From the NCBI GenBank assembly GCA_022768325.1, contig JALEMI010000053.1:62001-126000 (forward strand): DNA of 64,000 nt. Direction: 5' to 3'. Shown here in pieces: positions 760 to 37,615 of this stretch. The number at the start of each line of letters is the position of its first letter. Within the stretch, counting starts at the first letter, position 1. A program made the position numbers and the translations under genes. The notes below the pieces were generated by a model. That model ran no database searches, was not told the DNA's origin, and was given only the letters and a program-made list of their open reading frames with translations. The stretch is from Bacteroidales bacterium. Lineage in GTDB: Bacteria > Bacteroidota > Bacteroidia > Bacteroidales > Marinilabiliaceae.

Positions 760-943
760 TTTTTGTCCTTTTTCTTTTTTGTGGTATTGTCTCTTTTCCG
801 ACTATTCGCTCTTTATTTTCTGAGCATTATCAAAGATTTACGCCGCAAATATATCGACTTTTCGAACACTTCAACATCCCATTTCATAAAATTCTACATA
901 CACTACACGGCTATTTCATTTACTTCCCCAGATCATCATGAGT

Positions 944-1149
944 AACGGCTCCTTCCTGTTCCAACCTCCGCTGGCCCGTAGGGCCACTCCTCACTAACCT
1001 GGTACACACGCGCAGCGGGTGTGCCAGGCCGAAAGCGCAGCGGGTCCGCCCGACCAAAAGTCCAGCAACCACATTCCGACCACATCGACCCAATGGATGC
1101 GTTTGGGGCCAAACATCACTCGCCAGGTGGCCTATACGAAAGAGCCGTG
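944..1149 (+). repeat. Dispersed structured repeat, copy A (long form)
   Basis: Shares long stretches with 37455-37615 and shorter ones with 8194-8260 and 10620-10695; hairpins ggccc-gta-gggcc and cctggtacacacg/cgggtgtgccagg; outer inverted repeat acggctc/gagccgt. Confidence 0.75.
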
Positions 1150-1216
1150 CATACACTACACAAAACAATTTCCGAACCCTTTCTTCAAGCTATCTTCGCC
1201 ATTCAAAAAATTACCC

Positions 1217-8193: not shown

Positions 8194-8260
8194 ACGCCTG
8201 GCCCGAAGGCCATTCCTCACTAACCAGGTACACACGCAAAGCGGGTGTGCCCTGCCGAAA
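8194..8260 (+). repeat. Dispersed structured repeat, copy B (short form)
   Basis: acgcctggcccgaaggccattcctcactaaccaggtacacacgcaaagcgggtgtgccctgccg matches copies A, C and D. Confidence 0.7.
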
Positions 8261-8410
8261 TAACAAGACCGCCTCCCCTAAATCCCACACAAAGTTAAAT
8301 TCCTAACTTTCAACAATAAAATATTACCCAAACAACATCCACTATGCAAATAAATAGGTATATTCGCGCACCGAAAAACAGACCATAACAATAAAAAAAC
8401 ATAAAAGGAC

Positions 8411-10619: not shown

Positions 10620-10695
10620 CGCCTGGCCCGTAGGGCCATTCCTCACTAACCTGGTACACACGCACAGCGGGTGTGCCAGGCCGAAAGCGCAGCAG
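10620..10695 (+). repeat. Dispersed structured repeat, copy C (short form)
   Basis: cgcctggcccgtagggccattcctcactaacctggtacacacgcacagcgggtgtgccaggccgaaagcgcagc, near-identical to copy A. Confidence 0.75.
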
Positions 10696-37109: not shown

Positions 37110-37454
37110 GCGGGCGGCGATTCTTTTGACGAGTGAGGCTTCGAGGCCCTTTTGCGGAGGCTCAGAGACATAAAAAACGGGACATATAGGTCAAATTGCA
37201 GGATGAAACAGGTCTGCAGTCTTACGCAAATTGCATTTTTGAGGCATTCAAAACCTCAAAAAAGTCTTGCCACCTTATGGGGAAAGGGGGCGTTGTGTCC
37301 AAAAACTCAATTTTGGCATACGGGTAGCACAACATCACATCGTTTCTATCTTGCTATTCGCCCACTCTGTGGTTTTTGACTTATTGAATATTTTTCTGCG
37401 GATTTAAGGAAATGAATTTTCTTGGCATATAAGCGTTTATGGGGCGGCTTGCTC

Positions 37455-37615
37455 CTCTGCTGGCCTGAAAAGCCGTACCTCAGTAACCGGGTACATACGC
37501 AAAGCGGATGTGCCCGGTCGGAAGTCCAGCAACTACATTCCGACCATATCGACCCAATGGATACGCTTGGGGCTAAATGCAACTCGCCAGGTGGTCTAAA
37601 ATGAAAGAGCCGTGC
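37455..37615 (+). repeat. Dispersed structured repeat, copy D (long form)
   Basis: ctggcctgaaaagccgtacctcagtaaccgggtacatacgcaaagcggatgtgcccggtcggaagtccagcaactacattccgaccatatcgacccaatgg... aligned along its length with copy A. Confidence 0.75.

What the first reader, a model, noticed from the sequence alone, without database searches (positions are those of the whole stretch)
944..1149. Dispersed, strongly structured intergenic element in four same-strand copies with compensatory stem changes
Copies A (944-1149), B (8194-8260), C (10620-10695) and D (37455-37615) share a core. The core stem is cctggtacacacg/cgggtgtgccagg in A and C, and ccgggtacatacg/cggatgtgcccgg in D, so T-A became G-C and C-G became T-A while pairing was kept. 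A second hairpin (ggccc-gta-gggcc) changes to ggcc-cgaa-ggcc in B. A and D extend ~90 nt further with cccaa/ttggg, conserved in both, and ggcca/tggcc in A versus ggcta/tggtc in D. Both are closed by an outer inverted repeat (acggctc/gagccgt in A, ggggcggct/agccgtgcccc in D). All copies are intergenic. This could be a MITE/REP-like element or a structured RNA family.
Basis: seen in the sequence. Interest (0 to 1): 0.7.

Follow-up and report, generated by a model that had tools for sequence, protein, structure and literature searches.

The report
MITE-borne REP elements with dedicated nuclease
The four repeats are copies of a mobile DNA element present about 80 times in this gut bacterium: a two-hairpin module, sometimes carried inside a small transposon, that belongs to a family found beside one kind of single-strand DNA transposase gene across the Bacteroidales, a kind of transposase that had been reported to have no such partner.

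Summary
The four window copies belong to a family of about 80 (2.7-Mb genome), 94% intergenic by a crude gene call. Two things are layered. (1) Full-length copies, such as A, are 244-bp MITEs. A spans 906-1149, not 944-1149, with a 17-bp terminal repeat and a perfect 9-bp target duplication. The same terminal repeat and 9-bp duplications occur on an intact 1,576-bp ISAs1-family insertion sequence in the genome, the likely source of transposase. (2) The conserved core (hairpin with GNA loop, 8-9 nt, TAACC, second hairpin starting at CC) also occurs alone and in head-to-tail arrays. The genome has one Y1 (HUH) transposase gene of subclass 1.2, with a core copy 107 bp downstream. Across Bacteroidales, genes of this subclass are flanked by elements of the same architecture: 44 versus 1 in the reversed control, 37 of 44 in inverted layout. 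The elements are dispersed in genomes with the gene (median 10 copies in 42) and nearly absent without it (median 0 in 12). A 2018 survey listed subclass 1.2 as having no REP. Best reading: a new REP/REPIN variant with its own Y1 transposase, here partly packaged in an ISAs1-type MITE. Mobilisation by the enzyme is inferred, not shown.

The parts
897..905 (.). left copy of the 9-bp target-site duplication of copy A (CATACACTA)
   Evidence: direct sequence
906..1149 (+). copy A: full-length 244-bp MITE
   Evidence: TIRs, TSD and 11 candidate elements with both ends
906..922 (+). left TIR CACGGCTATTTCATTTA, close to the ends of the ISAs1-family IS (contig C111, L065)
969..1039 (+). core of A (model R1 match)
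   Evidence: 92.7 bits
972..986 (+). hairpin 1 of A, 6-bp stem with GTA loop (GNA class)
995..999 (+). TAACC tag; its CC opens hairpin 2
998..1028 (+). hairpin 2 of A (CCTGGTACACACGC/GCGGGTGTGCCAGG)
1133..1149 (-). right TIR of A (CACGGCTCTTTCGTATA on the minus strand)
1150..1158 (.). right copy of the 9-bp target-site duplication of A
8196..8265 (+). copy B: core only
   Evidence: 75.4 bits
10621..10691 (+). copy C: core only
   Evidence: 92.6 bits; meets the strict double-hairpin descriptor
37441..37614 (+). copy D: MITE with truncated left end
37458..37528 (+). core of D
   Evidence: 81.4 bits; best hit in the window of model R2, which was built only from other genomes
37598..37614 (-). right TIR of D
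   Evidence: G000:C88:99598-99614

Best explanation
The conserved core is a REP-like single-strand DNA element: hairpin 1 with a GNA triloop, 8-9 nt, TAACC, hairpin 2. It is the partner of a single-copy HUH/Y1 transposase (TnpA_Y1 subclass 1.2). Shown: the architecture, its dispersal in intergenic DNA, and the association of such elements with genes of this subclass across Bacteroidales. Inferred: as in known REP/RAYT systems, the enzyme recognises the folded single strand, probably on the lagging-strand template, and cleaves and rejoins it, which copies and spreads the element and selects for kept base pairing. In this genome the core also sits inside a 244-bp MITE whose terminal repeats match an intact ISAs1-family insertion sequence. 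Full-length copies therefore probably also moved by ordinary DDE transposition with 9-bp target duplications, and core-only copies and tandem arrays are derivatives.
For: MITE layer: TIRs on both ends of 11 candidate elements; flank identity peaks at exactly 9 bp (0.63 against 0.23 for cross-pairs). Contig C111 (1,577 bp) is an IS with the same TIR and an ISAs1 transposase, E 3e-65. Two IS sites show perfect 9-bp duplications, CTGACAGCA and GCAGCGGCA. REP layer: only one Y1_Tnp gene in the genome, carrying the Y---Q--HH motif of subclass 1.2, with a core copy 107 bp downstream. R1, built only from this genome, gave four weak hits in 29 foreign tnpA loci; all four fall on elements found independently beside tnpA. 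Strict descriptor near tnpA: 44 elements in 20 of 30 loci against 1 in the reversed control, 37 of 44 in inverted layout, GNA loop in 41 of 44 with the loop left free. R2, built only from other genomes, ranks copy D first in the window (E 0.007), and its five hits in nine other own loci are all core copies. R2 copies per genome: median 10 in 42 genomes with a close homologue of the gene, median 0 in 12 without any homologue, p 2.6e-6; genomes that gave no sequence to R2 only, p 1.1e-5. Inverted pairs about 140 bp apart recur in other genomes, as in REPINs.
Against: R1 finds no copies at E<=0.01 in 28 other genomes with the gene, and R2 finds none in this genome at genome-wide threshold: the two are linked by architecture and weak reciprocal hits, not by strong sequence similarity. 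Beside the own tnpA only one copy lies, in the same orientation, not an inverted pair; given about 60 occupied intergenic regions, one neighbour by chance is possible (roughly 7%, my estimate). In this genome neighbouring copies are always head-to-tail (16 of 16), not inverted. The related genome G058 has 3 copies and no tnpA, though it is only 88% complete. Genome G005 of the same genus has no tnpA but 5 R2 hits. Genomes without the gene tend to be smaller, and ancestry was not modelled. No biochemistry.
Confidence: 0.74

Rival explanations
1. Only a MITE: the whole family was spread by the ISAs1-family transposase, core-only copies are decayed MITEs, and the double hairpin resembles the tnpA-linked elements by chance.
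For: Clear TIRs, 9-bp duplications and a matching IS. Chimeric copies with MITE ends and a core-type centre exist.
Against: Core-only copies are the majority, lack TIRs and occur in head-to-tail arrays. Base pairing is conserved by compensatory change, which a double-strand transposase does not need. Reciprocal model hits tie the core to tnpA-flanking elements.
Confidence: 0.15
2. A structured RNA: the core is transcribed and acts as a regulatory or mRNA-stabilising hairpin, with selection on the RNA.
For: Strong folds with covariation. Copies tend to lie on the same strand as their flanking genes: 21 against 7 intergenic regions, p 0.013, crude gene calls.
Against: No Rfam match. No terminator-like site at A. 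About 80 copies here against none in 13 of the 14 other genomes of the genus fits a mobile element better than a conserved RNA. Co-orientation with genes also fits a leading/lagging strand preference.
Confidence: 0.08
3. The subclass 1.2 gene plus its flanking inverted elements is an ordinary IS200-like insertion sequence, and the dispersed copies are its non-autonomous relics.
For: The protein passes NCBIfam's IS200/IS605 model, 89.8 bits against a cut-off of 55. In other genomes the gene is flanked by inverted hairpins.
Against: The gene is single copy here and mostly 1-3 copies per genome elsewhere; published work finds subclass 1.2 lacks IS properties. IS200/IS605 ends are not normally inverted copies of each other (general knowledge).
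Confidence: 0.12

Closest known systems
REP/REPIN elements with RAYT (TnpA_REP) transposases, Proteobacteria and others
   Same: Short hairpin elements, extragenic, dispersed, cognate to a single-copy Y1 transposase gene that they flank in inverted orientation; inverted doublets in several genomes.
   Different: No GTAG/GTGG tag; two hairpins joined by a TAACC-containing linker; partner protein is subclass 1.2 (Y---Q--HH), not a class 2 RAYT; in this genome arrays are head-to-tail.
TIRtrons / TIRYT elements (Di Nocera 2013, PMC3733652)
   Same: Y1 transposase genes flanked by longer inverted, partly double-palindromic repeats, some forming dispersed families.
   Different: As far as the text shows, described for RAYT-like genes with different sequences; a TAACC double-hairpin family in Bacteroidales is not mentioned. 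Figure 9 of that paper could not be seen.
BrickBuilt MITE of Porphyromonas gingivalis (PMC4596501)
   Same: Bacteroidales intergenic MITE with internal tandem repeats (23 nt there, about 25 nt here).
   Different: TIRs are IS5-like (GAGACC...), not CACGGCT...; no link to a Y1 transposase in the passages read.
TnpA_Y1 subclass 1.2 (Quentin 2018, PMC6006769)
   Same: The partner gene has its signature motif and low copy number.
   Different: That survey lists no REP for this subclass and says it generally lacks IS200 end structures; here double-hairpin elements are found beside most genes examined.

Membership tests
MITE of an ISAs1-family IS (full-length copies) | terminal inverted repeats shared with an autonomous IS in the same genome | tested here: met
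   CACGGCTMTTTCATT on both; IS on contig C111 with ISAs1 transposase
MITE of an ISAs1-family IS (full-length copies) | target-site duplication of the length made by that IS | tested here: met
   9 bp for MITE copies and for two IS sites
MITE of an ISAs1-family IS (core-only copies) | terminal inverted repeats | tested here: not met
   core-only copies such as B and C lack TIRs
TnpA_Y1 subclass 1.2 (partner protein) | HUH motif and Y---Q--HH signature | tested here: met
   HIH and YIANQKQHH in the own protein; the signature is present in all 30 loci L115-L144
TnpA_Y1 subclass 1.2 (partner protein) | specific C-terminal domain and place in the protein tree | not tested
   no tree built; the one alignment tried failed on coordinates
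canonical REP with RAYT | GTAG/GTGG tetranucleotide at the hairpin foot | tested here: not met
   the foot of hairpin 2 carries TAACC
canonical REP with RAYT | class 2 RAYT protein | tested here: not met
   NCBIfam REP_Tyr_transpos 30.6 bits against a cut-off of 80
REP-like element of a Y1 transposase (broad sense) | inverted copies flank the transposase gene | tested here: inconclusive
   met in other genomes (37 of 44); in this genome one copy downstream, same strand
REP-like element of a Y1 transposase (broad sense) | copies dispersed in extragenic DNA, and dependent on the gene across genomes | tested here: met
   extragenic position tested in the own genome only
REP-like element of a Y1 transposase (broad sense) | bound and cleaved as single strand by the cognate protein | not testable with these tools
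   needs biochemistry
Rfam RNA family | match above gathering score | tested here: not met
   (whole window); one search found nothing near A even at E up to 5 that approached a gathering score

The most novel reading that the evidence does not exclude
TnpA_Y1 subclass 1.2, reported as having no REPs and generally no IS ends, has its own Bacteroidales-wide REP/REPIN superfamily defined by a GNA-loop hairpin, a TAACC linker and a second hairpin; in this genome that element has also been captured by, or has captured, a DDE-transposase MITE, so that it can spread by two unrelated mechanisms.
Probability: 0.65. Interest if true: 0.72.

Novelty: new variant of a known kind. Interest (0 to 1): 0.62.

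Why it matters
REP elements and their domesticated single-strand transposases are known mainly from Proteobacteria. An order-wide Bacteroidales counterpart, with a recognisable tag and a clear partner gene, would give a testable substrate for a transposase subclass with no known target, and would explain many unannotated intergenic repeats in gut bacteria. It also offers a comparison of how two unrelated transposition mechanisms can act on one element.

Tried and rejected
Rfam: no match. RNAalifold on the core alignment gave no useful consensus, probably because a few rows are mis-registered; pairs were counted on a named structure instead. Intrinsic terminator: none at A. BrickBuilt: TIRs and repeat unit differ. 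Searching other genomes by DNA similarity or with R1 does not reach beyond the genus, which is why the link was made through the tnpA loci. The loose hairpin descriptor was not specific (80 real against 53 reversed) and was replaced by a strict one. Proximity of one copy to the own tnpA was not taken as evidence alone, since chance gives about 7% by my estimate. High pairing in alignment A3 is partly by construction, because its members were found by hairpin search; the independent evidence is position, orientation, loop and tag. My first grouping of genomes as 'without tnpA' used too strict a threshold; one search showed that many carry more distant homologues, so three groups were compared instead.

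Full report
What was checked. The four copies are present as described, all on the + strand. A pattern from the core hits them and nothing else (4 against 0 in 100 shuffles), and a covariance model built from 54 genome copies gives them 75-93 bits, with nothing else above 16 bits (A, B and D or their equivalents are among the 54, so they match by construction). The two hairpins fold well; energy z-scores run from -1.7 for A to about -3.3. Compensatory changes are genuine over 54 copies: three pairs switch type on both sides in many copies, and sliding the partner by 1-3 columns drops pairing from 91% to 25-44%. Related sequences can exceed shuffles without any structure, so the slid control and the repeated changes carry the argument.

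The family. The window lies in a 2.72-Mb, 133-contig genome that is 92% complete. BLAST with A gives 62 places and the model 80 at E<=0.001, the weakest of which are uncertain. One other genome of the genus, apparently the same as the GTDB record Bacteroidales bacterium RGIG1033 from cattle rectum, has 3 copies; 13 others of the genus have none. Of 72 copies placed among predicted genes, 68 are intergenic (the gene calling is crude and seems to have the gene upstream of copy C on the wrong strand).

The MITE layer. Searching for the end of A showed that the element starts at 906, not 944. CACGGCTATTTCATTTA at the left matches the right end read on the other strand, and CATACACTA stands directly outside both. 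Eleven candidate elements carry both ends; identity between left and right flank peaks at exactly 9 bp, 0.63 against 0.23 between flanks of different elements. The same TIR bounds contig C111, 1,577 bp, which is a whole insertion sequence, presumably several copies collapsed by the assembler. Its protein is an ISAs1-family transposase (E 3e-65). Contig ends elsewhere show two insertions of this IS with perfect 9-bp duplications. MITE and IS share little beyond about 15 bp. This part is close to certain.

The core layer. Most copies, B and C among them, have no TIR. They are a core of about 70 bp, often in head-to-tail arrays with a period of 120-200 bp (16 of 16 neighbouring pairs in the same orientation) and sometimes with 25-nt tandem units after hairpin 2. 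Some copies are chimeras of MITE ends and core-type centre.

The partner gene. The genome has a single Y1 (HUH) transposase gene, on contig C45; a core copy lies 107 bp downstream. Its motif YIANQKQHH fits subclass 1.2 of Quentin et al. (Y---Q--HH), which they list with no REP and describe as generally without IS200 end structures (PMC6006769). One neighbour proves little. I therefore took 29 further subclass 1.2 loci from other Bacteroidales and scanned them with the model from this genome only. Four weak hits appeared (E 0.003 to 0.4 over 97 kb; alignments), each showing a short hairpin, a spacer, and TAACC or a near variant leading into a second stem. A mechanical search for that architecture, with the loop sequence left free, found 44 elements within 400 bp of tnpA in 20 of 30 loci, against 1 in the reversed sequences and 0-5 for nine altered tags. 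The loop is GNA in 41 of 44, and 37 of 44 lie upstream in the gene's orientation or downstream in the opposite one, the inverted layout known from RAYT genes (PMC2817692). Several of the loci the strict search missed have matches to model R2, built from 15 of these elements.

Genome-wide test. R2 counts in 80 genomes were set against the presence of the gene: 42 genomes with a close homologue, median 10 copies; 25 with a more distant homologue, many of them still bearing Y---Q--HH, median 3; 12 with none, median 0. Close against none gives p = 2.6e-6, and 1.1e-5 using only genomes that gave no sequence to R2. Genomes without the gene are on average smaller, and ancestry was not modelled. In several genomes copies come as inverted pairs about 140 bp apart, dispersed as one module, which is the REPIN arrangement (PMC3116915).

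Is the window's core one of these? Sequence similarity is too low for a genome-wide call in either direction. Architecture agrees: hairpin 1 with a GNA loop, 8-9 nt, TAACC whose CC opens hairpin 2. Copies A and C meet the strict descriptor fixed on other genomes (B and D, with weaker stems, do not); the window has no other hit, its reverse none, and shuffles 0.3 on average. R2, with no sequence from this genome, ranks copy D first in the window (E 0.007); in nine other own loci its five hits are all core copies, best E 0.001; in seven further loci rich in core-only copies its best hit is a core copy at E 0.05 and the rest are weak. I judge membership likely, not certain.

Mechanism. By analogy with TnpA_REP (PMC8266576), the enzyme should bind the folded single strand and cleave and rejoin it; the TAACC tag sits at the foot of a hairpin, where GTAG sits in REPs. 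That is inference. The kept base pairing is what such an enzyme would select. The bias of copies toward the strand of their flanking genes (21 against 7 regions, p 0.013) fits either a replication-strand preference or selection on RNA.

Literature limits. Only open PubMed Central text was searched. Di Nocera 2013 described RAYT-like genes flanked by long TIRs, some double-palindromic and repeated; its figures and supplements were not available, so overlap with the present family cannot be excluded. No paper found describes a TAACC double-hairpin family or a REP for subclass 1.2.

Noticed in passing
own genome, e.g. G000:C2, C20, C68, C70, C75, C114, C130: A second dispersed palindrome, GACGGTCNGGAGACCGTC, about 60 sites with at most one mismatch (reversed-pattern control 0-1), clustered and often near core copies; its CGTC ends recall the CGTC-tagged REPs of PMC3733652. 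None in the window.
   Followed up: partly
L083 (G000:C80:20338-20488): A 151-bp element with similar TIRs but no match to the core: possibly a second MITE type of the same IS.
   Followed up: no
L006, L014, L025, L031: Chimeric copies joining MITE ends to a core-type centre, suggesting recombination or gene conversion between the two forms.
   Followed up: no
L218-L230 (genomes G309 and G412): About 190-bp inverted double-hairpin modules, nearly identical between sites, some bounded by a further outer inverted repeat; good material for empty-site tests.
   Followed up: partly
G005 (same genus): No tnpA homologue, yet 5 R2 matches at E<=0.01: relics, or a limit of the model.
   Followed up: no
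L127, L144, L151: tnpA loci with several tandem or alternating element copies around the gene, resembling BIMEs.
   Followed up: no
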